Origin: Verrucomicrobiia bacterium DG1235
GTDB lineage: Bacteria; Verrucomicrobiota; Verrucomicrobiia; Opitutales; Opitutaceae
DNA: 64,000 bases
Assembly (NCBI GenBank): GCA_000155695.1
Contig: DS990592.1
Location: 5,399,282-5,463,281, forward strand
Direction: 5' to 3'
The notes beneath the pieces are model-generated. The model had not been told where the DNA came from. It did no database searches and was given only the letters and a program-made list of their open reading frames with translations. Made by a program: the position numbers and the translations under genes. Below are positions 1 through 19,096 of the stretch, piece after piece. Each line of letters opens with the position of its first letter. Positions within the stretch are counted from its first letter, which is position 1.

Positions 1-3000
1 TGAGTGGTGAGGAGTGAGGAGTGAGTTGCTCGAGATTTCACTCCTTTAAACTCACTACTCACTACTTTGTCGTCGAAGACGACAAGGGCGGTGCCTTTGC
101 CGCGGTGGAGGGCTTCTTTGAGGTGGCGGTTGATTTGGCCGATCGGAGAACGGCCGCTACCTGTTAGGGGCTTGAGGTCGGCGATGACGACTTCGATGTT
201 GTGCTCTTTGTAGCGGTCGAGTTTTTTGAAGTCGTCGGTGAAGATGAGCTTCCCGTCGACGCGCATCATCTCGTAGCCGTGGTCGGCGATCCAGTTGGCT
301 ATGGGCTGGTGGTGGCCTTTTCGGTTGCGGATGAGGGGAGCGAGGAGGAAGAGGTGCTTGGCTTTTTTGGCTTCGGGGGATGTGATTATTTTTTGGAGAC
401 GTTTTTGGATTTCTGTCTCGGTTTGGGAGATGAGGGGGGCGCCGGAGTCGGGGTTGTGCGGGATGCCGAGGCGGGAGTAGAGCAGGCGCAAGTATTGGGC
501 GACTTCGGTGATGGTGGCGACGGTGGACTTGCGGGAGCCGCGGGTGACGCGTTGCTCGATGGCGACGGTGGGCTGGATGCCGGTGAGCTGGTCGAGATCT
601 GGGCGGGGGAGCTGCTCGACGAATTGGCGGGCGTAGGGCGACATGGATTCCATGAAGCGGCGCTGGCCTTCTCCGAAGACGATGTCGAAGGCGAGGGTGG
701 ACTTGCCGGATCCGGAGGCTCCGGTGACTACGGTGAATTCGTAGTGGGGAATGGATACGGTGATATTTTTGAGGTTGTGGTGGCGGGCTCCTGTGACGGT
801 CAGAGCGGAGCTTTGCCCGTCGAGTGGTGAGGAGTGAGGAGTGAGTGGTGAGTTGGAGTTGTAGGAAGATTTGGCTTCGGCGGCGAGGAGGGTGGGATTT
901 GGGATCTCGGATTTGAGATTTGAGATTTGAGTTCGAGAGTCGAACTCCGGTTGGAGGTATTTGGCGGTTTCGGTGGTGGTTTGGGCGCAGGTTTCGGGGG
1001 TGCCTTGGAAGACGACTTGGCCGCCTTTGGCTCCGGCTTCGGGGCCCATCTCGATGAGCCAGTCGGCGGATTTGAGGACGTCGATGTTGTGCTCGATGAC
1101 GATGAGGCTGTGCCCGGAGTCGACGATCTTCTGGAGGACGGTGAGGAGTCTGCGGACGTCGTGCTTGTGGAGGCCGGTGGTGGGCTCGTCTAACAGGATC
1201 AGAGATCCTGTTGAGTTTTGAGTAGTGAGTGGTGAGTGGTGAGTTGAGTCGTTGACTCGCGTGGAGGAGGAGAGGTATTTGACGAGTTTGAGGCGTTGGG
1301 ATTCGCCGCCGGAGAGGGTGTTGAGGGGTTGGCCGGATTTTAGGTAGCCGAGGCCTACTTCTTCGAGGGCGGCGAGCTTGGAGTGGATTTTTGGATACGC
1401 TTCGAAGAGCTTGAGGAGTTGGTCGATGGTGAGGTCGAGGAGCTGGGAGATGTTGTAGCCTTCGTGAGTGATTTCGAGGAGCTCGGATTTGAAGCGTTTG
1501 CCGTCGCAATGGGGGCAGGGGACGTAGACGTCGGAGAGGAACTGCATCTCGATCTTTTCGTAGCCAAGACCTTTGCAGGGCTCGCAGCGTCCGTCGCCGG
1601 CGTTGAAGGAGAAGCTGGAGGCGGTGTATCCGTTTTCTACGGACTGGGGGAGTTTTCCGTAGAGGGTGCGGATGTGGTCCCAGGCTTCGACGAAGACGAC
1701 GGGATTTGAGCGTGGGGTGCGGGAGACGGGTGATTGGTCGACGAGGGTGATTTCCTCGAAGGGTAGGTCGGTGGTGAGGGAGGCGACGGAGGCGGGGTCT
1801 TCGGCGATGAGTCCGCGCTGGGCGATGAGGTTTTGGTAGAGGACGGCGTTGAGGAGGGTGGACTTGCCGGAGCCGGAGACGCCGGAGAGGCAGACGAAGC
1901 GTTGGAGGGGGATGGAGAGGCTGAGGTCTTGGATGTTGTGCTTGGATGCGGAGGTGATGTGGAGCCCACCTTCGCTCTTCGAGCTATGGCGGGTTCTCGC
2001 TTTGCTCGAAGTGCTAGTTGATCGCGACACAAGGTCGCTTCCCACGGATCGGGTTTGTGTGGGGACGGGGATTTGTTTTTTGCCGGAGAGGTATTGGCCG
2101 GTGATGGATTTTCTGGATTTTAGGAGCTGGGCTTGGGTGCCTTGGAAGACGAGGTGGCCGCCGGCGGCTCCGGGTTGGGGGCCTATCTCGATGACGTGGT
2201 CGGCAGCGCGGATCATGGCGTCGTCGTGCTCGACGAGGACGACGGTGTTGCCGGCATCTGTTAAGGTGCGGACGATGTGGATGAGGCGGTCGATGTCGCG
2301 GGCGTGCAGGCCGACGGAGGGTTCGTCGAGGACGAAGAGGGTGTCGACGAGGGAGGCGCCGAGGCAGGAGGTGAGGTTGACTCGTTCGACTTCGCCACCG
2401 GAGAGGGTGCGGGCTGAGCGGTTGAGGGTGAGGTAGCCGAGTCCGACGTGGTCGAGGTAGCGGAGGCGGGAGAGGATGGCGTCCGAGGCGATGGTGGCTT
2501 GGTGGTTGGGTGTTTCGTCGCGAAACTCCTCAAGTGTCGCTCCGCTCGGTAGTGGATTTTTTGCCCACGAATCGCTCGAATCTTCTCGAATGGGATTTCG
2601 GGCTTTTTGTGTTTGGGGTGCTTGGGTTTTGGGTTGGGAGGACTCGATGAGGTGGAGGAGTTGGTCGACGGGGAGTTGGTAGAGGTCGGGGAGGCGGTAG
2701 CCTTGCCACTTCCAGCAGAGGGAGTCGGGCTGGAGGCGGGTGCCTTGGCAGTCGGGGCATTTGACGTAGGCGCGGTAGCGGGAGAGGAAGATGCGGACGT
2801 GCATCTTGTAGGTGTTGCGCTCGAGCCAGTCGAAGAAGCCTTTGACGCCGTACCAGAGTCCGTCGGATTCGCTGCCGGGCGGGAGCTTGCGGTAGGCGGG
2901 CTCGCCGAGGATGACGTTGTCTTGCTGGCGTTGGGTGAGTTTGTTGAAGGGTTTTGTAGTGAAAATCTTGAGACGTTTGCAGGCGCGGACGAGGTCGTTT

Positions 3001-4004
3001 TTCGACTCGCCGTAGACTTGGCCTTCGAAGGGTTTGATGAGTCCGTCGGCGATGGATTTGTTGGTGTCGGGGATGGCGAGGCGGTAGTCGATCTCGATGA
3101 CGCGTCCGAAGCCGCGGCATTTGGGGCAGGCGCCGATGGGTGAGTTGAAGGAGAAGAGCGGCGGGCTGGCGGGTCGGTAGGTTTTTCCGCTGGTGGGGGA
3201 GTGGAGGCCGCGGGAGTGGCGGGCGAGGGTGTCGCCGTTTTTGTCGAGGAGGAGGAGCTGGCCTTGGCCGAATTCGAGGGCGGTTTCGGCGGCTTCGAGG
3301 AAGCGGGAGCGGTTTGTATTGAAAAGTTGGATACGGTCTTGGACAACGTGGAGGGTGGTGTTGTCTGCCCACGAATTGCACGAATCTTCACTAATCGTTT
3401 CGATTCTGTGCAGTTGTGGGGCTGAGGCTGATTTCGGGGTGGTTTGGTAGAGGCGGGAGTAGCCTTGGGCTTTGATGTTTTTGAGGATTTCGGGCCACGT
3501 TAACTTTTCGGGCTTGGTGACTTGGAAGGCGAGGGTGACGGTTTGCTTGGAGTAGGTGGCGAGGGATTTTTGCCAGATGGTGATTGGGTTGTCGTCGTGT
3601 ATTTGCTCGTTGGTGACGGGGTCGTAGAGGGCGGCAACGTGGGAGAACCAGACTTTGAAGAAGTCGGTGAGCTCGGTCATGGTGCCGACGGTGGAGCGGG
3701 AGGTTTTGATGGTGTTCTTCTGCTCGATGGCGATCGAGGGGCGCACGTTTTCGGCGGAATCGAGGTCGGGCTTTTCGAGCAGGTCGAGGAATTGGCGGGT
3801 GTAGGCAGAGAAGGTTTCGACGTAGCGGCGCTGGCCTTCGGCGTGGAGGGTGTCGAAGACGAGGGAGGACTTGCCGGCTCCGCTGAGGCCGGTGACGGCG
3901 ATGAATTTGCCGAGGGGGATATCGACGTCGATGTTCTTGAGGTTGTTTTGGCGCACGCCGCGGAGGCGGATGGCGGTGGGCTTGTTGGAAGCGGCGGTGG
4001 GCAT
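1..4004 (-). CDS. uvrA: UvrA excinuclease subunit A, tandem (two-unit, Chlamydia-type) form, 3' end outside window
   Basis: DNA damage-recognition ATPase of UvrABC nucleotide excision repair. The frame starts at ATG 4004 and stays open to the window edge, giving 1334 complete codons. Unit 1 begins with [16 protein letters not shown] and Walker A GLSGAGKS (about residues 39-46). It has UvrA zinc motifs (CPKC, CPDC), signature LSGGE near 534 and LDEPSVGLH. Its second ATPase half has P-loop GVSGSGKS near 708, zinc motifs CEPC and CPHC, LSGGES near 897 and [11 protein letters not shown] second UvrA unit then starts ([11 protein letters not shown]-loop GASGSGKS near 1095, [12 protein letters not shown]). 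A normal UvrA is about 950 residues; fused double UvrAs of about 1,800 are known in Chlamydia. Linkers and loops carry repeat-derived, low-complexity insertions (about residues 200, 460-485, 655-680, 916-931, 1020-1060, 1313 onward). The coding strand is C-rich and stop-poor in other frames, so many false ORFs overlie it. Confidence 0.93.
2..66. repeat. Heptad array pair in inverted orientation inside uvrA
   Basis: Plus-strand 7-nt units GAGTGGT, GAGGAGT, GAGGAGT, GAGTTGC run from 2 to 29. Further units of the same family in the opposite orientation (ACTCACT-type) follow at about 49-66. On the coding strand both read through in the uvrA frame; the stretch at 2-29 gives THSSLLTT-like residues. 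The array probably continues past the window edge. Confidence 0.7.
822..856. repeat. Five-copy heptad array (GAGTGGT family) in uvrA
   Basis: Units GAGTGGT, GAGGAGT, GAGGAGT, GAGTGGT, GAGTTGG are exactly adjacent. The array lies in the linker between UvrA unit 1 and unit 2 and encodes Ser/Pro/Leu/Thr/His-rich residues. It is the same family as the arrays at 2-29, 1213-1247 and 6263-6297. Confidence 0.8.
894..947. repeat. Six-copy heptad array (GAGATTT family) followed by a perfect hairpin, in uvrA
   Basis: Units GGGATTT, GGGATCT, CGGATTT, GAGATTT, GAGATTT, GAGTTCG span 894-935. The last unit is the left arm of a perfect hairpin: GAGTTCGA (929-936), loop GAG, TCGAACTC (940-947). The coding strand reads SNLKSQI-type peptide in the linker between the two UvrA units. 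Confidence 0.8.
1213..1258. repeat. Five-copy heptad array (GAGTGGT family) with adjacent hairpin, in uvrA
   Basis: Units GAGTTTT, GAGTAGT, GAGTGGT, GAGTGGT, GAGTTGA span 1213-1247. A small hairpin GAGTC-GTT-GACTC overlaps the end (1246-1258). The array interrupts an ATPase half between the signature helix (LVKYLSSS) and Walker B (LILLDEPT), where family members have only a few residues. Confidence 0.8.
1971..2046. repeat. Probable dispersed repeat insertion with inverted arms, in uvrA
   Basis: The stretch joining the two ATPase halves of unit 1 is unlike UvrA. It contains 8-nt inverted arms CTTCGAGC (1977-1984) and GCTCGAAG (2004-2011), then GATCGCGACACAAGGTCGCT at about 2020-2039. It encodes a Ser/Thr/Arg-rich segment ([20 protein letters not shown]). 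Only one copy is in this window, so its repeat nature is inferred from composition and inverted arms. Confidence 0.45.
2563..2593. repeat. 31-nt dispersed element, copy 1, inside uvrA
   Basis: Starts GCCCACGAATCGCTCGAATC and continues to 2593. It aligns without gaps to 3367-3397. Both copies are in the same uvrA reading frame and give related peptides (REDSSDSWA here, SEDSCNSWA there). Confidence 0.7.
2616..2637. repeat. Short heptad-like run (GGGTTTT family) in uvrA
   Basis: GGGTGCT, one spacer base, GGGTTTT and GGGTTGG. The coding strand gives [10 protein letters not shown]-like residues. It lies 23 nt from the 31-nt element at 2563-2593, forming one composite insertion in the first ATPase half. 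Confidence 0.55.
3367..3397. repeat. 31-nt dispersed element, copy 2, inside uvrA
   Basis: Starts GCCCACGAATTGCACGAATC. It is nearly identical to 2563-2593 and loosely similar to 52392-52423 in the gatC-gatA gap. It adds a peptide containing SEDSCNSWA to the UvrA insertion region near residues 203-213. Confidence 0.7.
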
Positions 4005-4225
4005 TTGGTGGAGTGAAGAGTGAAATTGGAAAAGTGAACTCGACGAGATGGGGGACCGTTTGATTGGTCAAGGTTTGAGGACTGTTTGCCGGACTTCCTT
4101 TTTGGGGTGGGGGTTGCTGTTGCGGGTCTGGGGCGAAGCCCGCGTCTTGCAAGGGAAGTGGGTAAGGGGAACGAGGGGAAGCGTATTTGGCTTCCCGTTT
4201 CGTTAAATTCTGAGGTTCGGGTGGC

Positions 4226-5227
4226 TTAGTGGCTGAGCACTATGCGGTAGCGGGCTTGGCCGCTTTCGAGGTGGGCGAGGGCTTCGTTGGCTTGGTCGAA
4301 TTTGAAGTGCTCGGTTACGGGCTCGATTTTGTGGAGGGCGGCGAATTCGATCATCTTGGCGATGGTGGCGGGGCTGCCGACGGGTGAGCCGGAGATTTGG
4401 CGTTGGGCCATGATGAGGGAGAAGGCTCCGATCTGGATGGGCTCTAGGGCGGCGCCGAGGAAGTGGAGGCGGCCTTTGGGCTTGAGGGTGTTGACGTAGC
4501 CGTTCCAGTCGAGTCCGACGTTGACGGTGGAGAGTATGAGGTCGAAGCGTCCGGCGGCGGCTTCGATTTCTGCGGCGTCGCGGGAGTTGAGGGTGTGGTG
4601 GGCGCCGAGCTTGAGGGCTTCTTGGCGTTTGGCTTCGGAGGTGGTGAAGGCGGTGACTTCGCAGCCCCATGCGTTGAGGAAGGCTAGGGCCATGTGCCCG
4701 AGGCCGCCGATGCCGATGACGGCGACTTTTGCGGTGGGGCTGACTTCGTACTGTATAAGGGGATTGAATACGGTGATACCTCCGCAGAAGAGGGGGCCTG
4801 CTTTGGCGGCGTCGATGGAGTCTGGCAGCGGGATGACGCTGAGGGCGCTGGCGCGGACTTTGTCGGCGAATCCGCCGTGGCGTCCGACGATGGTGCCGGC
4901 GGCGGCTTGGCAGAGGTTGTGGTCGCCGGAGAGGCAGCTTGGGCAGGTGGTGCAGTAGGACGAGTGCCAGCCGAGTCCGACGCGTTGGCCTGGGGCGAGG
5001 TTTTTGACGTCTGAGCCGATAGCACCGATGGTGCCGACGACTTCGTGTCCGGGGACGAAGGGATAGGTGGTCATGCCCCATTCGTTGTTGAGCATGCTGA
5101 GGTCGCTGTGGCAGATGCCGCAGTGTTCGACGTTGATCTCAACGTCGGTGGGCGCGAGTTCGCCGGGGTCGTATTCGAAGGGTTCGAGTTTTCCGCCGGG
5201 AGTGTGGGTTGCGTAGGCTTTTATCAT
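4226..5227 (-). CDS. Zinc-dependent NAD(P) alcohol dehydrogenase (YahK/cinnamyl-alcohol-dehydrogenase type)
   Basis: Medium-chain dehydrogenase that would interconvert alcohols and aldehydes with NAD(P)H in the cytoplasm. All metal sites are present: catalytic zinc ligands Cys39 (GICHSD), His61-Glu62 (PGHE) and Cys148 (LFCGG), and structural zinc cysteines 92, 95, 98 and 106. The Rossmann motif GIGGLG is at about 172-177. Length 333 aa is normal for the single-domain cytosolic subgroup, and motifs such as HCGICHSD and CGGIT place it nearest YahK-like aldehyde reductases; substrate cannot be read from sequence. It stands 222 bp from uvrA and 100 bp from the glycosyltransferase, so co-transcription is uncertain. 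Confidence 0.88.
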
Positions 5228-5328
5228 GGTCGTTTTTTTGTTGGCTGTTTTTGGTCTCTTCGAATGAAGTGGGTGGCTGTAGTTTTTCGGTGTTTGCTAC
5301 GGAATGGGTTGGTGGTCGGCTGCGTTTT

Positions 5329-6459
5329 TTATGTGTGCTTGATGGACTTTAGGAGGCGGGCGTAGGCGGCGGTCTGGGATTTTAGGGAGAAGTGTTTTCG
5401 GGCATATTCGCGCGCGGCGTGGGACATCTGGAGTCTTAGGTCGGGATTGGTGGCGAGTTTTTGGAGGGCGGCGAGGAATGAGGGCTCGTCGCGGTGTGGG
5501 ATGAGGGTGCCGGAGGTGCCGTGTCGGAAGGTTTCGGAGACGCCGTTGACGTCGTAGGCGATGACGGGGAGGCCGGACATTTGGGCTTCGACGAGGAAGT
5601 TTGGGAGGGATTCTTGGTCGGATGTGTGGAGGGCGATGTCGGCGTCGGCGTAGAGGCTGCGGGGATCTTTGAGGAGTCCGGGAAAGTGGATGCGCTCGGC
5701 GAGGCCGAGGCGGGCGGCTTCGGCTTGGCAGGCAGCGCGGGTGGGTCCGTCGCCGGCGAGAGTGAGCTTCCAGTCGATGTTGGCCGGAAGCTGGGAGCAG
5801 ATGCGGATGAGGCGGATCTGCTTTTTCTGAGGGCGGAACATGGAAACGCTCACGAAGTGAGCGTTTGGGTTTTGGGTTTTGGGTTCTGGGTTCTGGGTGG
5901 TGGAGTGAATTGTAGGAGCTGTGGGGATGTGGGTTTCGAAGTCGCGGATGCAGCCGTTGTAGATGACGGTGGATGTATTGGGGCGGTGGATACGGTAGTC
6001 GGAGGCGATGCGGCGGAGGGCTTCGTGGGAGTTGGCTACGATGTGGTCGGCGTGGCGGAGGGCGCGTCGGTAGAGGTAGGGGATGGGACGGCCGGTGCGG
6101 AAGGTGGCGAAGAGCTGGTAGGGGCGGTTTTTTGAGAAGGTGAGGAGTCCGGCGTGGCAGTTGGCCATGCGGCCCATGGGGAGGACGGCGTCGGGCTGGA
6201 GTTTTGCGATGAGGGCCTTGAGGCCGGGGGCGTACCAGTCGGTTTTTATGAAGCGCTGGTTTGAGTAGTGAGTAGTGAGTAGTGAGTGGTGAATGGTTTG
6301 AGGCGAGAAGGGAGATGGGGCGGGGTCGAGGGTGCCGCCGCGACGGAAGACGACGAGGTGGACGTCGACGCCGCTTTTGGCGAGGCCTTGGGCGATGGCG
6401 AGGGTTTGTTGCTCGGTGCCTCCGTTGCGGAGGTGGTCCTGTAGAATGATGAGTTTCAA
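5329..6459 (-). CDS. GT4-family glycosyltransferase with repeat-derived insertions
   Basis: GT-B fold transferase moving a sugar from a nucleotide donor, probably onto a cell-surface or lipid-linked glycan. The N-terminal LQDHLRNGGTEQQTLAIAQGL is typical of GT4 acceptor domains. The C-terminal half has SMFRPQKKQ, LAGDGPTR, the donor-site ESLPNFLVEAQMSGLPVIA segment with its EX7E glutamates, and GVSETFRHG. Two non-family segments are repeat-encoded: HHSLLTTHYS near residues 54-66 and TTQNPEPKTQNPN near 187-198. Removing them gives a normal-length GT4 protein (about 345 aa). The stop lies 102 bp before the dehydrogenase start. The upstream gfa stop is only 7 bp away, so these two are probably one operon. 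Specific substrate unknown. Confidence 0.85.
   Translation of the reverse strand: MKLIILQDHLRNGGTEQQTLAIAQGLAKSGVDVHLVVFRRGGTLDPAPSPFSPQTIHHSLLTTHYSNQRFIKTDWYAPGLKALIAKLQPDAVLPMGRMANCHAGLLTFSKNRPYQLFATFRTGRPIPYLYRRALRHADHIVANSHEALRRIASDYRIHRPNTSTVIYNGCIRDFETHIPTAPTIHSTTQNPEPKTQNPNAHFVSVSMFRPQKKQIRLIRICSQLPANIDWKLTLAGDGPTRAACQAEAARLGLAERIHFPGLLKDPRSLYADADIALHTSDQESLPNFLVEAQMSGLPVIAYDVNGVSETFRHGTSGTLIPHRDEPSFLAALQKLATNPDLRLQMSHAAREYARKHFSLKSQTAAYARLLKSIKHT
5847..5901. repeat. Hairpin plus five-copy heptad array (GGGTTTT family) in the glycosyltransferase gene
   Basis: A perfect hairpin CGCTCAC-GAA-GTGAGCG occupies 5847-5863. Four bases later come units GGGTTTT, GGGTTTT, GGGTTCT, GGGTTCT, GGGTGGT (5867-5901). 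The coding strand reads NPEPKTQNPN-type peptide between the two Rossmann domains of the GT-B fold. Confidence 0.8.
6263..6297. repeat. Five-copy heptad array (GAGTAGT family) in the glycosyltransferase gene
   Basis: Units GAGTAGT (three times), GAGTGGT, GAATGGT are exactly adjacent. The coding strand gives HHSLLTTHYS after the LVVFRRGGTLDP strand of the N-terminal domain. Same family as the arrays in uvrA. Confidence 0.8.
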
Positions 6460-6460
6460 A

Positions 6461-6481
6461 GGGGAATTAGGAATGAGGAAT
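6461..6481. repeat. Three-copy heptad array (GAGGAAT family) forming the 3' end of the GFA gene
   Basis: Units GGGGAAT, TAGGAAT, GAGGAAT. The TAA stop of the GFA-family gene (6467-6469) and its last few codons (KIPHS) lie in this array. Confidence 0.65.
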
Positions 6482-6856
6482 CTTGGGATTGCAGAGGGCG
6501 ACCCAGGGGAGCTTTTCCTCGGGGAAGACGTCGCGGTCGGGCGGGTAGGCTTCTGGGTGGTCGAGGGAGCCGGTGACGATGTCGACGTGGGTGGGGCGGT
6601 CGGGGTGGGTGTAGGTGAGGGAGGTGCCGCAGTCGGGACAGAAGGTACGGGTGGCGGAGGTCGGGGTTTGGTAGGCTTTTGGCGTGTCGGCGGTGTATTC
6701 GAAGTTTGAGGACTCGACGGTGATCCACGCGACGACTTGGGCGCCGATGGCTTTGCGGCAATTGTCGCAGTGGCAGTAGGCTCGGTAGAGGATGGGTGGC
6801 TTGGCTTGGTATTGGATTTTTCCGCAGTAGCAGCCGCCGGTGATGGATTCGCTCAT
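6467..6856 (-). CDS. GFA-family (glutathione-dependent formaldehyde-activating-like) zinc protein
   Basis: Small cytoplasmic protein of the GFA/CENP-V fold. The seven characteristic cysteines are all present: Cys9 and Cys11 (GGCYCG), Cys28, Cys30 and Cys33 (CHCDNC), Cys73 and Cys76 (CPDCG), which bind two zinc ions in family structures. The founding member was described as condensing formaldehyde with glutathione, but most homologues have no proven activity, so only the family is assigned. Length 129 aa is usual. The last five residues and stop are written in a heptad repeat, so the native C-terminus may have been replaced. The glycosyltransferase start follows 7 bp after the stop. Confidence 0.85.
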   Translation of the reverse strand: MSESITGGCYCGKIQYQAKPPILYRAYCHCDNCRKAIGAQVVAWITVESSNFEYTADTPKAYQTPTSATRTFCPDCGTSLTYTHPDRPTHVDIVTGSLDHPEAYPPDRDVFPEEKLPWVALCNPKIPHS

Positions 6857-6968
6857 GGAGTGAGAGTGAGGAGTGGCGGGAGCGGAGCAAGAATTTGTGT
6901 TTGTGGTTTTCTGGGCGTTTTTTTTCGCTCGCGTGGAACGGGGGCGTTGGGTGAGGGTTTTAGGAAAT

Positions 6969-7439
6969 ATGAGTCGTGAGGGTTCGGAAGGTTTGGCTTC
7001 GATTTTGAAGCGTTGGGCAGTGAGTGGTTTGGGCGTTTGGCTCGGCAGCTATTTCGTGGATGGCATCAGCTACGACGAGAATTCGACGCTGTTGATCGTG
7101 GTGCTGCTGCTCGGCTTGTTTACGGCGGTTTTGAAGCCTTTGCTGGTTTTGCTGGCCTTGCCGTTTGTGGTGCTGACGCTGGGGATTGGGGTGCTTTTCA
7201 TTAATGCGCTGCTGTATTTGCTGGTGGGCAATCTGGTGGACGGTTTTCACGTGGCTAGCTTTGGGGCCGCGTTTTTCGGGGCTTTGTTCGTGACCTTCAT
7301 GAATCTGATTTTCACAGGGTGGATTGGCGGGGCGCGGCGGAGCTCGTTTCGGGTGCGGGCGAATGGTTCGGCGGGCTCGAGGCGGAGCGAGCCTAAGCCG
7401 CGCAAGGTGAAGGCGAAGGACGACGTTATCGATATCTAG
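6969..7439 (+). CDS. Four-TM membrane protein, phage-holin-4 / YvlD family
   Basis: Small integral membrane protein of the family Pfam calls 'Mycobacterial 4 TMS phage holin', which is mostly chromosomal and of unknown role. Four hydrophobic helices are visible: WAVSGLGVWLGSYFV, then two around LLIVVLLLGLFTAVL and LLVLLALPFVVLTLG, and one across FGAAFFGALFVTFMNLIF. The family motif KPLLVLLALPF sits in the middle. A Lys/Arg-rich cytoplasmic tail ends the protein (156 aa). The ATG at 6969 is preferred over an upstream in-frame ATG because an AGGA lies 6 nt before it and the upstream part does not resemble the family. No phage genes are nearby. Confidence 0.8.
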   Translation: MSREGSEGLASILKRWAVSGLGVWLGSYFVDGISYDENSTLLIVVLLLGLFTAVLKPLLVLLALPFVVLTLGIGVLFINALLYLLVGNLVDGFHVASFGAAFFGALFVTFMNLIFTGWIGGARRSSFRVRANGSAGSRRSEPKPRKVKAKDDVIDI

Positions 7440-7537
7440 TTGCTTGCTGTCTTTTTGGCGTGGGCTTGGAGGCGATTGCGCTAGACACTTTTAGAGCTGG
7501 CGGGTATCCCGCTAGGCTTTCTTAATCCGGTTAAATT

Positions 7538-8932
7538 ATGGCTGACGAAAAATACGATTTGGTAGTAGTAGGCGGTGGCCCGGCGGGCTATGCGGCGGCA
7601 ATTCGAGCAGGACAGCTCGGCAAGAAGGTTGCCTGTATAGAGATGGATCGCGCGGGCGGCACGTGCCTGAACTGGGGTTGCATACCGAGCAAGGCTTTGC
7701 TGAAGAGCGCGGAATTGATCAATTCGATCAAGAAGTCGGAGGAGTTCGGCATCAAGGTCGGTTCGGTGGACTACGATTTTGCGAAGATCATCAAGCGCTC
7801 CCGTGGCGTGGCCGATCAGATGGCGAAGGGCATCGAGTTTTTGTTCAAGAAGAACAAGGTCGAGTACATTACGGGCAAGGCCCACGTGGACGACGCGAAG
7901 ACGGTTTCGGTCGTGGAAGGCTCGAGCAAGGGCAAGAAGCTGAAGACTGATCATATCCTAATCGCTACGGGTTGTCGGGCTCGCAAGCTGCCGTTTTTGC
8001 CGAATGACGATGAGCGGGTGATGACGTCTCGCGAGGCGTTGGTGATGAAGAAGCAGCCCAAGTCGGTAGCGATTATCGGCTCTGGCGCGATTGGCGTGGA
8101 GTTCGCGTATTTTCTTAATTCGTTTGGAACGGAGGTGACGATTCTCGAAGTGCTTCCGCAGCTGGTTCCGGTTGAGGACGAGGAGATTGCCCAGACTTTG
8201 GGTCGCGAGTTCAAGAAGCAGGGAATCAAGACTGAGCTCGGCGTGCAGGTGACTGCTGCTGAGTTGACCAAGTCTGGCGTGAAGCTTGTCTATTCGAAGA
8301 AGGGCAAGGATGTGACGCTGGAAGTCGACGTGGTTATCCAAGCGGTCGGCGTAGTAGCGTTTCTGGATGGGGCGGTGAATCCTGTACTGAACTTGAAGAC
8401 GGATCGCGACTATCTGGTCGTGGACGATCGCTACATGACGAACGTAGCTGGCGTCTATGCGGCGGGCGATATTATCGGTCCGCCTTGGCTGGCGCACGTG
8501 GCGACCTTTGAGGCGGTCCAGGCGGTGAATGGAATTTTCGGGGCGAGCAAGCCGCGTCGCGTGAAGAATTTCCCAGGCGCGACTTACTGTAATCCTCAGA
8601 TTGCCAGCACGGGCGTGACGGAGAAGAAGGCCAATGAGCTGAAGCTTGACTACAAGGTTGGCAAGTTCCCGTTTGTGGCTTCCGGGAAGGCGGTCGCTGG
8701 CGCTCATTCGGAGGGCTTCGTGAAGCTGATCAGCGACGCGAAGACGGGCGAGATCCTTGGGGCGCACATTATTGGCCGGGACGCGACTGAGCTCATTACG
8801 GAGTACTGCCTAGCGATGGAGATGGAAGGCACGATCGACGAGATTCATGGCACGATCCACGCGCATCCGACGATGAGCGAGGCGCTTGCCGAAGCGGCCG
8901 CCGACACGCACCAGGAGGCGATCCACATTTAG
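7538..8932 (+). CDS. lpdA: Dihydrolipoamide dehydrogenase (E3)
   Basis: Flavoprotein that reoxidises dihydrolipoamide of 2-oxoacid dehydrogenase complexes or the glycine cleavage system, passing electrons to NAD+. The FAD-binding GGGPAG is at 12-17, the redox-active disulfide Cys43-Cys48 in GGTCLNWGC, an NAD-binding GSGAIGVEFA near 180-190, and the interface pair His443/Glu448 in HPTMSEALAEA. At 464 aa it is full length and nothing is missing. No E1, E2 or glycine-cleavage gene is adjacent, so it is probably a stand-alone E3 shared by several complexes. A strong intrinsic terminator follows 13 bp after the stop. Confidence 0.95.
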   Translation: MADEKYDLVVVGGGPAGYAAAIRAGQLGKKVACIEMDRAGGTCLNWGCIPSKALLKSAELINSIKKSEEFGIKVGSVDYDFAKIIKRSRGVADQMAKGIEFLFKKNKVEYITGKAHVDDAKTVSVVEGSSKGKKLKTDHILIATGCRARKLPFLPNDDERVMTSREALVMKKQPKSVAIIGSGAIGVEFAYFLNSFGTEVTILEVLPQLVPVEDEEIAQTLGREFKKQGIKTELGVQVTAAELTKSGVKLVYSKKGKDVTLEVDVVIQAVGVVAFLDGAVNPVLNLKTDRDYLVVDDRYMTNVAGVYAAGDIIGPPWLAHVATFEAVQAVNGIFGASKPRRVKNFPGATYCNPQIASTGVTEKKANELKLDYKVGKFPFVASGKAVAGAHSEGFVKLISDAKTGEILGAHIIGRDATELITEYCLAMEMEGTIDEIHGTIHAHPTMSEALAEAAADTHQEAIHI

Positions 8933-8945
8933 ATTTCCTGATTTC

Positions 8946-8978
8946 GGAGCGGTTCTTTTGGGGCCGCTCCGTTTTTTT
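8946..8978 (+). terminator. Intrinsic terminator of lpdA
   Basis: Perfect 7-bp stem GGAGCGG / CCGCTCC (8946-8952 and 8964-8970) followed by a run of seven T. Confidence 0.85.
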
Positions 8979-9048
8979 GTTTTGGCTGTCGTTTTTCGCG
9001 CTCGACTTTAGGGTTGGGTGTTTGGGAAGGTGGCGTCGTTGGTTTAAT

Positions 9049-9123
9049 GCTCCTGTAGTTCAATGGATAGAACATTGGTCTCCGAAGCCGAGGATGTGGG
9101 TTCGATTCCCGCCGGGAGTACCA
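9049..9123 (+). tRNA. tRNA-Arg (anticodon CCG)
   Basis: Full cloverleaf: acceptor GCTCCTG paired with CGGGAGT (G-U at 1-72), D arm GTTC/GAAC, anticodon stem TTGGT/GCCGA with loop CTCCGAA giving anticodon CCG, T arm GTGGG-TTCGATT-CCCGC, discriminator A and an encoded CCA. Confidence 0.93.
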
Positions 9124-9273
9124 GCCGTCGTTTTTTGGCAAGCTTGAGGCGGGGAAGGGCGTTTTCGTTTTCTCGGTTGCAATTTTCTCATGGCGCGAAA
9201 CCTTGCTATCTTTTCATTGGTGCTTAAGTAATAGCGGTTTCCCCCGTAGTCAGCATCTGGAACTCAAATTTAG

Positions 9274-9732
9274 ATGGAAAAAGCCGCTATTGAAACGTCT
9301 GTGCCGGACCCGGTTAAGCAGTTCTCGATTTTCATGGAGAACAAGGTGGGGCGCTTGTCCGATATCTGTCGTTTGTTCGACGAGCACCAGATTCACATCT
9401 TGGCGTTGACGACCTTAGACACGACGGACTGCGCGATCACGCGAGTCGTGGTGGACGATCCTCAGCAGGCGAGAGAGCTGCTTTGGGAGCACAGCATAGC
9501 GTTTAGCGAGAGCGAGATTCTCGCCGTCGAGATATCTGGAGAGCATGATGTACATCGTGTATTGGCGTCGCTACTACAAACTGAGATCAATGTGCATTAC
9601 ATATATGCCTTTGTAAGTCGTCCGCATGGCAAGTCGGCGCTTGCGATGAATATCGAGGACATGGAGCTGGCGGTTCATATTTTGAATACGCACAGTCATC
9701 GGGTCCTCAGTCAGCGAGACATCTCGCGCTAG
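9274..9732 (+). CDS. Tandem ACT-domain protein
   Basis: Cytoplasmic protein of 152 aa made of two ACT-type ligand-binding modules and nothing else. The first (KQFSIFMENKVGRLSDICRLF ... ALTTLDTTDCAITRVVVDD) has the characteristic beta-alpha-beta-beta and the V-G-R-L turn that usually contacts amino acids. The second (AVEISGEHDVHRVLASLLQTEINVHYIYAF) matches the same fold. Such stand-alone proteins are thought to sense amino acids, but the ligand cannot be read here. The kinase-like gene starts 38 bp downstream, so the two are probably co-transcribed and may act together. Confidence 0.82.
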   Translation: MEKAAIETSVPDPVKQFSIFMENKVGRLSDICRLFDEHQIHILALTTLDTTDCAITRVVVDDPQQARELLWEHSIAFSESEILAVEISGEHDVHRVLASLLQTEINVHYIYAFVSRPHGKSALAMNIEDMELAVHILNTHSHRVLSQRDISR

Positions 9733-9770
9733 TCTTTTTCTTTCATTCTGTTCACCTATTTTGCCGACCT

Positions 9771-11009
9771 ATGAGCGACACCCCGCTGAAACCAACTGCT
9801 GCAACCGAGCCACCTAAGAAGACAGAAACCGCCGAACGCCACCAGGACTTGGAAATTAAGGATGCTCAGATCATCTTTAACTCGGTCTGGACGAGCTTAG
9901 AAGAGAAGTATGGTCGGACGCGTTTGCATTTTCCTCAGGAGCTCATTCTTTTGGGAGGAGCGCCTGGAGCCGGTAAGGGGACGAACACTCCGTTTATTCA
10001 AGAGGTCCGCGGACTAACCGCGGAACCTATCGTTGTCAGCTCCTTGCTGGATACGCCTGAGATGCGTCGCATCAAGGATTCAGGCGGCATGGTCGGAGAC
10101 CGGGAAGTGATCTCTATCTTGCTCGAGCGTTTGCTTCAGCCGGATTATCGAGATGGAGCGATTCTCGACGGATTTCCCCGTACGTTCGTGCAGGTGGAGT
10201 GTATGAAGATGCTGTATCATAAGATGCTGCAGCTTCGCGCGGAGTATTTTAATACTGAATACCGTTCGCATTTTCGCCAGCCGCTGATCCACATCATGAT
10301 GCTTTTCATCGATGAGAAGGAGAGTGTGTCGCGACAGCTCAAGCGTGGACGGGAGATTCAGGAATACAACGAAGAAGTCGAGCGCACTGGCATTGGCGAG
10401 CTCATGGAGACACGGCCTACGGACTTGGATCCGAAGGCAGCTCAGCGCCGTTATCGGGTCTTTAAGGAGGCGACTTACGATGCGTTGCAATCCTTGCGGG
10501 AAGTTTTCCACTACCACTTTATCAGCGCGCAGGGAGAGCTTCCCGAGGTGCGCCAGAACATCATCAAGGAGCTTCAGTACCAGAGCTCACTTGAACTGGA
10601 TCCACGTACCTTTGACTCGCTGCATCGCTTGCCGATCGCGAGCAAGATCGTGGAGCATGCCCGTCAGCAGCTTGTTCGTCGACTCGACCAGTACGAAATG
10701 GAGGAGACGGAGCTGTTTCACGGTATCATCGACTTCATCGAGGGGAAGATCATGCCGATCGTGCGGCGTCACGCTATCACGGGCGCGGCTCACATCAACA
10801 CGGAAGACCCGACTCTCGATACGCCTTCGGCGATGGCGATGCTGATCGATATTTTTTCGGAGCGGGGTTACCACGCCTCGGTCGATTTGCATAAGATCGA
10901 GATTCCGGAGGAGTTCGACGTAACGACGGGGCAGATCCGTTGCAGGACGAAGAAGGTGTGGCGTATTCTGATCCGTTTCAAGGGTTCGGAAATTCGGCGT
11001 GGTTCCTGA
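9771..11009 (+). CDS. Adenylate kinase-like nucleoside monophosphate kinase with C-terminal extension
   Basis: The central part is an NMP-kinase P-loop domain: GGAPGAGKGT at residues 62-71, a nucleotide-binding region with VVSSLLDTPEMR and GGMVGDREVISILLERL, and the adenylate kinase signature LDGFPRT at about 132-138, then a lid-like KRGREIQEYNEE segment and ARG-rich RRYRVFKE. This predicts phosphoryl transfer between ATP and a nucleoside monophosphate. It is much longer than adenylate kinase (412 versus about 215 aa): a 50-residue N-terminal stretch and roughly 150 C-terminal residues (HARQQLVRRLDQYEMEETE to the end) match no family I recognise. The upstream ACT protein is 38 bp away. True substrate unknown. 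Confidence 0.75.
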   Translation: MSDTPLKPTAATEPPKKTETAERHQDLEIKDAQIIFNSVWTSLEEKYGRTRLHFPQELILLGGAPGAGKGTNTPFIQEVRGLTAEPIVVSSLLDTPEMRRIKDSGGMVGDREVISILLERLLQPDYRDGAILDGFPRTFVQVECMKMLYHKMLQLRAEYFNTEYRSHFRQPLIHIMMLFIDEKESVSRQLKRGREIQEYNEEVERTGIGELMETRPTDLDPKAAQRRYRVFKEATYDALQSLREVFHYHFISAQGELPEVRQNIIKELQYQSSLELDPRTFDSLHRLPIASKIVEHARQQLVRRLDQYEMEETELFHGIIDFIEGKIMPIVRRHAITGAAHINTEDPTLDTPSAMAMLIDIFSERGYHASVDLHKIEIPEEFDVTTGQIRCRTKKVWRILIRFKGSEIRRGS

Positions 11010-19061: not shown

Positions 19062-19096
19062 GCTAGCTGCTAGCTGTTAGCGGTCAGGCGGTAGCT
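19062..19096. repeat. Five-copy heptad array (GCTAGCT family) at the 3' end of the AraC-type gene
   Basis: Units GCTAGCT, GCTAGCT, GTTAGCG, GTCAGGC, GGTAGCT. The TAG stop of the regulator (19070-19072) and its final residues (YRLTANS) fall inside. On the coding strand these units contain an in-frame stop in the cycle, unlike the arrays inside uvrA. Confidence 0.7.

What the first reader, a model, noticed from the sequence alone, without database searches (positions are those of the whole stretch)
822..6297. Stop-free heptanucleotide arrays inserted inside two neighbouring genes
Seen: tandem 7-nt arrays (usually five copies) at 822-856, 894-935, 1213-1247 (uvrA) and 5867-5901, 6263-6297 (glycosyltransferase), plus shorter ones. 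Because 7 is coprime to 3, such an array reads the same seven-residue cycle in every frame: ACCACTC gives TTHHSPL, AAAACCC gives KTQNPKP, AAATCTC gives KSQISNL. A stop-free unit therefore cannot end the gene in any frame and produces the same peptide. This is a simple reason why these arrays could settle inside genes; several different unit families do it here, so the property, not one sequence, is shared.
Basis: partly seen in the sequence, partly recalled or inferred. Interest (0 to 1): 0.82.

Follow-up and report, generated by a model that had tools for sequence, protein, structure and literature searches.

The report
Replication-oriented 7-letter DNA repeat arrays
A marine bacterium's chromosome is sprinkled with short arrays of repeated 7-letter DNA units that nearly always point the way the DNA is copied, and the ones found inside genes were in genes facing the copying machinery, where they can add extra loops to proteins without breaking them.

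Summary
The arrays are real. Period 7 is the only clearly enriched short tandem period in 1.18 Mb sampled from the same genome, and orthologues show the uvrA and glycosyltransferase segments are insertions at variable sites. The stronger pattern is replication polarity. In 99 samples of 20 kb, 48 of 49 arrays of score >=12 carry the G-rich strand (TGAGTRG, TGAATTA, TGAAGKA, TGGGTTY) on the leading strand, 1 is undecidable, 0 reversed. At score >=10, isolated units predict about 18 reversed of 76; none clearly is. Weaker matches and one short window array are sometimes reversed. Lagging-strand genes read mostly stop-free units; 7 of 7 sampled in-gene arrays are in such genes, as are uvrA and the glycosyltransferase. 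The TGAGTRG family has 209 pattern hits here, none in seven congeners, and often shares a TGAATT end. I favour fork-polar dispersal plus slippage, filtered by stop codons.

The parts
7..25 (+). heptad array (TGAGGAG/TGAGTGG) in uvrA; G-rich strand is + (leading)
50..66 (-). short heptad array of 2.4 copies in the opposite orientation, the one reversed piece of score >=10 in the window; complementary by eye to 7-25 (not folded)
   Evidence: direct reading
827..853 (+). heptad array TGAGGAG/TGAGTGG in uvrA, reads [10 protein letters not shown] on the gene strand
893..931 (+). heptad array TGGGATT then TGAGATT in uvrA, reads [14 protein letters not shown] on the gene strand
1211..1244 (+). heptad array TGAGTAG/TGAGTGG in uvrA, between the ABC signature region and the Walker B segment (motif names recalled); reads [13 protein letters not shown]
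5864..5898 (+). heptad array TGGGTTT/TGGGTTC in the glycosyltransferase, reads TTQNPEPKTQNPN
6262..6297 (+). heptad array TGAGTAG/TGAGTGG in the glycosyltransferase, reads HHSLLTTHYSN
6463..6481 (+). weak GGAATTA/GGAATGA heptad trace (score 9) just upstream of the glycosyltransferase start
2558..2594 (+). second dispersed repeat (TTTTTGCCCACGAATCGCTCGAAT...) inside uvrA, within a segment absent from the eight orthologues; leading-strand oriented 24:0 in the samples
3362..3395 (+). second copy of the CACGAAT repeat inside uvrA
1995..2039 (.). third kind of in-frame insertion in uvrA (around SSKARTR), similar peptide in L062
1..4004 (-). uvrA (long UvrA), lagging-strand gene, start at 4004, runs off the window
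5329..6459 (-). glycosyltransferase group 1, lagging-strand gene

Best explanation
The arrays belong to a genome-wide population of 7-nt tandem repeats that are made and spread with fixed polarity to the replication fork: the G-rich, C-poor strand (mostly TGRRNNN) is the leading-strand sequence, i.e. the lagging-strand template. I infer that the pyrimidine-rich nascent lagging strand slips by 7 nt to lengthen an array, and that such strands occasionally anneal to another exposed lagging template and are copied in, which keeps polarity on both replichores and spreads one family within one species. Selection then filters: on leading-strand genes most units put a stop in every frame, on lagging-strand genes most read through, so in-gene copies survive in lagging-strand genes at loops that tolerate extra residues (uvrA, glycosyltransferase). 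Shown: period 7, polarity, expansion in this genome, partly shared ends, insertion sites, lagging-gene restriction in the sample. Inferred: the slippage and annealing steps, and the reading of GC skew as replication direction.
For: Polarity: 49 arrays (score >=12) in 99 samples (1.98 Mb): 48 clear, 1 undecided, 0 reversed; score >=10: 74 of 76 clear, 2 undecided, 0 reversed, against about 18-19 reversed expected from isolated single units (log10 P about -9.5 if loci are independent). By family on the main contig: TGAGKRG 39 of 39 loci in the fetched DNA (four of them copies of one 159-bp tandem segment) and all main-contig rows among the 100 rows listed; GAATTNN 38 of 38 rows; TGGGWTY 17 of 17 rows; TGAAGNN 22 of 22 own rows. 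GC skew changes sign near 0.83 and 3.85 Mb. Arrays are 1.5% C on the leading strand against 19.6% in intergenic DNA. In-gene arrays: 7 of 7 in lagging genes although leading and lagging coding DNA are 44% and 42%; 7 of 7 arrays of score >=12 in L061-L069 lie in uvrA or the glycosyltransferase (5 of 9 relatives) and have the same sense, in genes with negative local skew. Spread: TGAGKRGTGAGKRGTGAG has 209 hits here, none in 7 congeners, 1 hit in the other 30 relatives. Shared 3' end TGAATT within 21 nt in 14 of 41 arrays against 17 of 1065 isolated units. Other genomes of the order: 34 arrays agree with local skew, 4 disagree, 6 undecided (the overlapping loci of G116 counted twice).
Against: Base skew explains much of the polarity: other-period tandem duplications of score >=10 are 77 polar to 11 reversed over periods 5, 6, 8, 9, 10, 11 and 13. 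Period-7 matches of score 8-9 are 28 polar, 8 reversed, 8 neutral, no better than other periods. Arrays concentrate in the highest-skew regions (rho 0.50; 37 of 49 in the top skew quartile, the region on a quartile boundary being counted in both), and so does the window (skew 0.38 in its first 8 kb, 0.04-0.17 after). The window has one reversed short array, 50-66. Polarity is leaky elsewhere: in G112, 17 of 21 listed loci fit one switch point, and spot skew does not place the switch there. The backward-read control of TGAGKRG also hits in this genome, 64 against 289 (partly the same arrays, by inference). One of the 99 samples (L161, 3 arrays) was taken off my grid after one search had shown hits there. 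No intermediate has been seen and no empty site of a very close strain was available. Loci are not independent if they arose by copying.
Confidence: 0.55

Rival explanations
1. Plain local slippage: ordinary replication slippage amplifies pre-existing 7-nt motifs, and the strong GC skew of this genome makes most seeds G-rich on the leading strand. No dispersal and no special mechanism.
For: Other-period duplications are polar too, 77:11; array density follows skew; units differ between families; a link between heptamers and polymerase slippage was proposed earlier (reference 33 of PMC4692102, passage; I recall it as Mrazek 2007).
Against: Seeds are only 75-77% polar on average, so about 18 of 76 arrays should be reversed and none clearly is; AATTATG and AATTAGG seeds are only about 2:1 yet 38 of 38 GAATTNN rows are polar; one family has 209 hits here and none in seven congeners; array ends share TGAATT more than isolated units do.
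Confidence: 0.25
2. A single-strand (Y1/HUH, IS200/IS605 or RAYT type) transposase moves the repeats into the lagging-strand template, which would set their orientation.
For: Two Y1_Tnp genes in this genome; such elements are described as targeting the lagging-strand template (PMC6006769, start of abstract seen in the listing); a non-heptad dispersed repeat is polar as well, 24:0.
Against: No heptad array of score >=10 in the readable part of the 3.3-kb loci around either gene (one locus is not fully readable); no hairpin seen by eye in the units, which REP-type substrates need (recalled); variable copy number is not typical of a transposon (recalled).
Confidence: 0.1
3. The arrays are kept by selection as polar chromosome-organising motifs (KOPS- or AIMS-like).
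For: Strong leading-strand orientation.
Against: No increase towards the terminus: array number against distance from the inferred origin rho -0.09, p 0.38; the TGAGTRG family is nearly absent from congeners; arrays rather than single motifs.
Confidence: 0.04
4. One reading: arrays settle in genes because a stop-free heptad is safe in every frame.
For: The arithmetic is right and in-gene arrays are stop-free on the gene strand.
Against: 33 of 49 arrays are intergenic and 25 of those 33 are equally stop-free on the lagging strand; orientation, not unit choice, separates host from non-host genes.
Confidence: 0.06

Closest known systems
TAACTGA direct repeats of Beggiatoaceae, Cyanobacteria and Bacteroidetes (MacGregor 2015, PMC4679880; abstract, two sections and passages seen)
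   Same: 7-nt tandem repeats, mostly intergenic; one orientation stops in all frames, the other reads one 7-residue cycle (LSVISYQ) and is found in genes; horizontal spread suspected
   Different: One unit sequence; the words leading and lagging do not occur in its text, so no replication polarity is reported; here several C-poor units with near-complete polarity
GGGNATC / GGGGAYT heptamer repeats of Xanthomonas and Nostoc (Rehm 2015, PMC4692102; abstract, introduction and passages seen)
   Same: G-rich 7-nt arrays of 2-26 units, mostly intergenic, dispersed
   Different: Explicitly no leading/lagging preference in the two Xanthomonas genomes; here a strong preference
Heptanucleotide elements of Geobacter metallireducens (PMC2700814, passages seen)
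   Same: [quoted passage not shown]
   Different: GC-rich element of 49 copies; polarity not described in the passages seen
Tandem repeats of Borg elements (PMC9879509, passages seen)
   Same: [quoted passage not shown] make new protein segments
   Different: Perfect repeats; almost all genes on one strand of each replichore, so replication and coding polarity cannot be told apart
Tandem heptanucleotides of Calothrix (mentioned in PMC4692102; the name STRR recalled) and Rickettsia palindromic elements (recalled)
   Same: Dispersed small repeats; the latter sit in frame inside protein genes
   Different: Not compared by sequence here; Rickettsia elements are palindromic and longer (recalled)

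Membership tests
Bacterial heptanucleotide tandem repeats (STRR / GGGNATC / TAACTGA kind) | Tandem 7-nt units, 2 to tens of copies, dispersed at many loci | tested here: met
Bacterial heptanucleotide tandem repeats (STRR / GGGNATC / TAACTGA kind) | Mostly intergenic | tested here: met
   33 of 49 intergenic, 9 at gene edges, 7 inside, with my own codon-usage gene calls
Bacterial heptanucleotide tandem repeats (STRR / GGGNATC / TAACTGA kind) | No replication-strand preference (as reported for Xanthomonas; not defining for the whole kind) | tested here: not met
   48 of 49 polar, 1 undecided
Phase-variation contingency repeats | Copy number varies between cells or strains and switches gene expression | not testable with these tools
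   one genome per species, no reads
IS200/IS605 or REP-RAYT elements | Y1 transposase gene next to the repeats | tested here: inconclusive
   two Y1_Tnp genes present, no heptad array in the readable part of their 3.3-kb loci; a transposase could act from a distance
IS200/IS605 or REP-RAYT elements | Hairpin plus tetranucleotide ends | not tested
   units not folded
Reverse-transcriptase-made repeats | Reverse transcriptase in the genome | tested here: not met
   no RVT_1 match at E <= 0.001 in a 96% complete genome; divergent RTs could be missed
KOPS / AIMS polar motifs | Leading-strand skew rising towards the terminus | tested here: not met
   rho -0.09 with distance from the inferred origin
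Rickettsia palindromic elements (in-gene selfish repeats) | In-frame insertion at tolerant sites of protein genes | tested here: met
   works like, not filed as a member
Rickettsia palindromic elements (in-gene selfish repeats) | Palindromic element of a shared sequence family | not tested
   no sequence comparison made

The most novel reading that the evidence does not exclude
Small dispersed repeats of this lineage, heptad arrays and the CACGAAT element alike, spread by a transposase-free process at the replication fork in which lagging-strand single strands anneal to other lagging-strand templates. Orientation is thereby locked to replication, and lagging-strand genes become the reservoir where new protein loops are born.
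Probability: 0.25. Interest if true: 0.8.

Novelty: new variant of a known kind. Interest (0 to 1): 0.58.

Why it matters
Heptamer repeats have been noted in several bacteria without an agreed mechanism. A near-complete lock to replication direction, beyond what base skew predicts, points at the fork as the place where they are made or moved, and gives a simple rule for which genes can gain repeat-coded loops. It also makes the mechanism testable in a laboratory strain by flipping a reporter relative to the origin.

Tried and rejected
Frame-neutrality as the cause: tested by stop class against location, not supported, though 7 in-gene arrays are few. Chance: one shuffled copy gives 0 period-7 arrays. 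Ordinary composition: tested with other periods and with isolated seeds; it explains most but not all of the polarity. My first composition null (54% of random heptads G>C against 26% G<C) was too lenient and is replaced. Transcription rather than replication: intergenic arrays lie in all four flanking-gene arrangements and keep replication polarity, although they favour gaps between two head-on genes over gaps between two co-directional ones (19 to 3, p 0.0009); I have no firm reason for that. KOPS-like function, RT and Y1 transposase: see the membership rows. A dispersed motif with core ATCGCGTGACAAGC is 8:0 exact but 18:8 with two mismatches, so not counted as polar. Rows dropped: three of four copies of a 159-bp tandem segment and one array with an N flank were left out of the end statistics (45 to 41); most overlapping duplicate loci and all own-genome loci were left out, but the overlapping pair of G116 stayed in. 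Congeners: no heptad array of score >=12 in about 0.19 Mb from five congeners; for two further congeners only contigs under 5 kb had been fetched and these were skipped. Unit specificity outside this genome: for TGAAGNN the backward-read control pattern was hit more often (41 hits in 6 genomes) than the pattern itself (7 hits in 4 genomes besides G000), so that unit is not special elsewhere; for GAATTNN the pattern prevails, 144 hits to 13 outside G000. L069 dropped out of the UvrA alignment because my start extension cut it short. Gene calls come from my own simple codon-usage caller, not checked against an annotation. Of the 99 samples, 59 are evenly spaced, 39 lie on the half-way grid (not all its points), and one (L161) is off the grid, in a place where one search had shown hits; it holds 3 of the 49 arrays, all polar.
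Full report
What is there. The window lies on a 5.5-Mb contig of a 5.78-Mb genome whose nearest named relatives, by the glycosyltransferase, are Pelagicoccus species (Verrucomicrobiota, Opitutales; 70-72% identity to three of them). The named arrays are present. They lie in uvrA (start 4004, minus strand, open for 1334 codons to the window edge) and in a group 1 glycosyltransferase (5329-6459, minus strand). Read on the other strand, the TGAGTGG and TGAGATT units hold a stop in their cycle, while the TGGGTTT unit is stop-free on both strands.

Insertions. Against nine glycosyltransferase and eight UvrA orthologues the five named arrays fall at sites whose length and sequence vary between species. 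At the uvrA site of 1211-1244, L064 has its own heptad array (PTQNPKPRTQN), while L061, L062, L063 and L068 carry segments in which no period-7 array was found. At the uvrA segment 2514-2612, where the window holds a CACGAAT repeat, L065 has a heptad array instead (KTHNSQLTPH). In the glycosyltransferase, L063 shares LLTTHY with the window at the first site; at the second, L062, L063 and L064 have related NPEP, KTRNP and QNPRP peptides, of which only that of L062 passes as an array; L065-L069 are shorter there. So the second glycosyltransferase site was probably already hit in the ancestor of the Pelagicoccus group (inference), while the uvrA sites turn over. uvrA also holds two CACGAAT repeats (2558-2594 and 3362-3395) and a further small insertion at 1995-2039.

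Genome-wide count. In 59 evenly spaced 20-kb samples (1.18 Mb) period 7 stands alone: 28 arrays of score >=12 against 0-4 for each of periods 4-6 and 8-13; 14 and 21 are multiples of 7 (18 and 16), 15 gives 6, and one shuffled copy gives 0 for period 7. With 40 more samples (1.98 Mb in all, 34% of the genome; one of the 40 was off the grid, in a place with known hits) there are 49 arrays: 33 between genes, 9 across a gene edge, 7 inside genes, using a codon-usage gene caller I wrote (1502 genes, 86% coverage, 51% on the leading strand).

Polarity. GC skew of the samples changes sign near 0.83 and 3.85 Mb, which I take as terminus and origin. Arrays of score >=12 have their G-rich strand on the leading strand in 48 of 49 cases, 1 is undecided by G minus C, 0 reversed. 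Pattern searches over the whole genome agree for four families on the main contig: TGAGKRG (main-contig rows among the 100 listed of 289 hits, 39 of 39 fetched loci), GAATTNN (38 of 38 rows), TGGGWTY (17 of 17 rows), TGAAGNN (22 of 22 own rows). On the leading strand the arrays are 43% G, 29% A, 27% T and 1.5% C, while intergenic DNA there is 19.6% C.

How much of this is base skew? A good deal. Tandem duplications of other periods with score >=10 are 77 polar to 11 reversed (sum over seven periods); period-7 matches of score 8-9 are 28 polar, 8 reversed and 8 neutral, like the other periods; and arrays prefer regions of high skew (rho 0.50; the first 8 kb of the window has skew 0.38, the rest 0.04-0.17). 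The fair test compares each array with isolated single copies of its own unit: these are only 75-77% polar, so 18-19 of 76 arrays of score >=10 should be reversed; 74 are clearly polar, 2 unclear, 0 clearly reversed (log10 P about -9.5 if loci are independent). Independence is doubtful because families spread. The window, outside these samples, has 8 matches of score >=10: 6 polar, 1 reversed (50-66) and 1 unclear (19062-19081). In other genomes of the order the tendency holds but leaks: 34 arrays agree with the local skew of their locus of at most 3 kb, 4 disagree, 6 are undecided (the G116 arrays counted twice); in G112, on one contig of 3.99 Mb, 17 of 21 listed loci fit one switch point, while spot skew values do not place the switch there.

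What polarity means for genes. TGAGTRG on a gene strand contains a stop codon in its cycle, hence a stop in each frame; its complement CYACTCA does not. With the G-rich strand on the leading strand, a lagging-strand gene reads the mostly stop-free strand. All 7 in-gene arrays of the samples are in lagging-strand genes although leading and lagging coding DNA are about equal (44% and 42%; binomial p 0.007); 4 of the 7 units are stop-free on both strands, so for those the stop filter alone does not explain the side. uvrA and the glycosyltransferase are lagging-strand genes too, and the 7 arrays found inside the same two genes in 5 of 9 relatives have the same sense. Five leading-strand genes end inside an array whose unit stops on that strand. 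AATTATG and AATTAGG units carry stops on both strands; none of the sampled ones lies inside a called gene, and four sit at gene edges. The stop filter is partly true by construction, since ORF calling cannot put a stop inside a gene; the non-trivial part is that orientation follows replication.

Spread. The pattern TGAGKRGTGAGKRGTGAG has 209 hits here and none in seven congeners; among the other 30 relatives one genome has a single hit. GAATTNN (four units) occurs in 16 of 132 genomes of the order, own included, with most hits in G000, G031, G111 and G112; TGAAGNN in 5 of 132, where its backward-read control hits other genomes more often than it does. TGAGTRG arrays often end in the same way: TGAATT follows directly in 10 of 41 arrays and within 21 nt in 14 of 41, against 17 of 1065 isolated units. 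Together this suggests that arrays are copied from place to place, on top of slippage that changes copy number (2 to 15 full units).

Mechanism. The leading-strand sequence is also the sequence of the lagging-strand template, the strand exposed at the fork. Slippage of a pyrimidine-rich nascent lagging strand, and its occasional annealing to another lagging template, would give growth by whole units, spread, and orientation fixed to the fork on both replichores. This is inference. A Y1 transposase working on the same strand is possible (two genes) but nothing found ties it to the heptads; no RVT_1 gene was found.

Known or new. Heptamer repeats, and the observation that one orientation stops in every frame and the other reads one heptapeptide, are in print (PMC4679880, two sections read). 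G-rich heptamers of Xanthomonas were reported to show no leading or lagging preference (PMC4692102, passage). My paper searches showed no title or abstract start reporting replication-locked heptad arrays; each lists only the top hits, and the library lacks most subscription papers, so this is no proof of novelty. I rate it a new variant of a known kind.

Noticed in passing
L014, offsets 897-10815 read on its reverse strand (G000:C6 near 1.11 Mb): Ten copies of a ~70-bp motif (core CGCGGAGCGCTGGCCGGAGTTGTATGGGCTGACTGG) spaced 0.4-3.3 kb, all one way, two more in L031; resembles integron attC cassettes (label recalled).
   Followed up: no
window 2558-2594 and 3362-3395; 24 places in the samples: Dispersed repeat TTTTTGCCCACGAAT followed by further CACGAAT-like units, also leading-strand oriented (24:0 with up to 2 mismatches), not a heptad and not C-poor.
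   Followed up: partly
L007:12129, L038:3475, L049:13997 and others (offsets on the leading-strand reading): Palindromic element GCGCAATCCAATGTCTAACGTTAGACATTGGATTGCGC and near copies at seven sampled places, MITE-like.
   Followed up: no
G000:C6:2738275-2738765: Four tandem ~159-bp copies, each with a two-unit TGAGGAG array; the flanks look like tRNA gene sequence by eye, no tRNA search was run.
   Followed up: no
whole genome: Very strong GC skew (mostly about 0.2, up to 0.36 per 20 kb) with only 51% of called genes on the leading strand.
   Followed up: partly
sampled intergenic regions: Intergenic arrays are commoner between two head-on genes than between two co-directional genes (19 against 3; intergenic lengths 75 and 72 kb).
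   Followed up: partly
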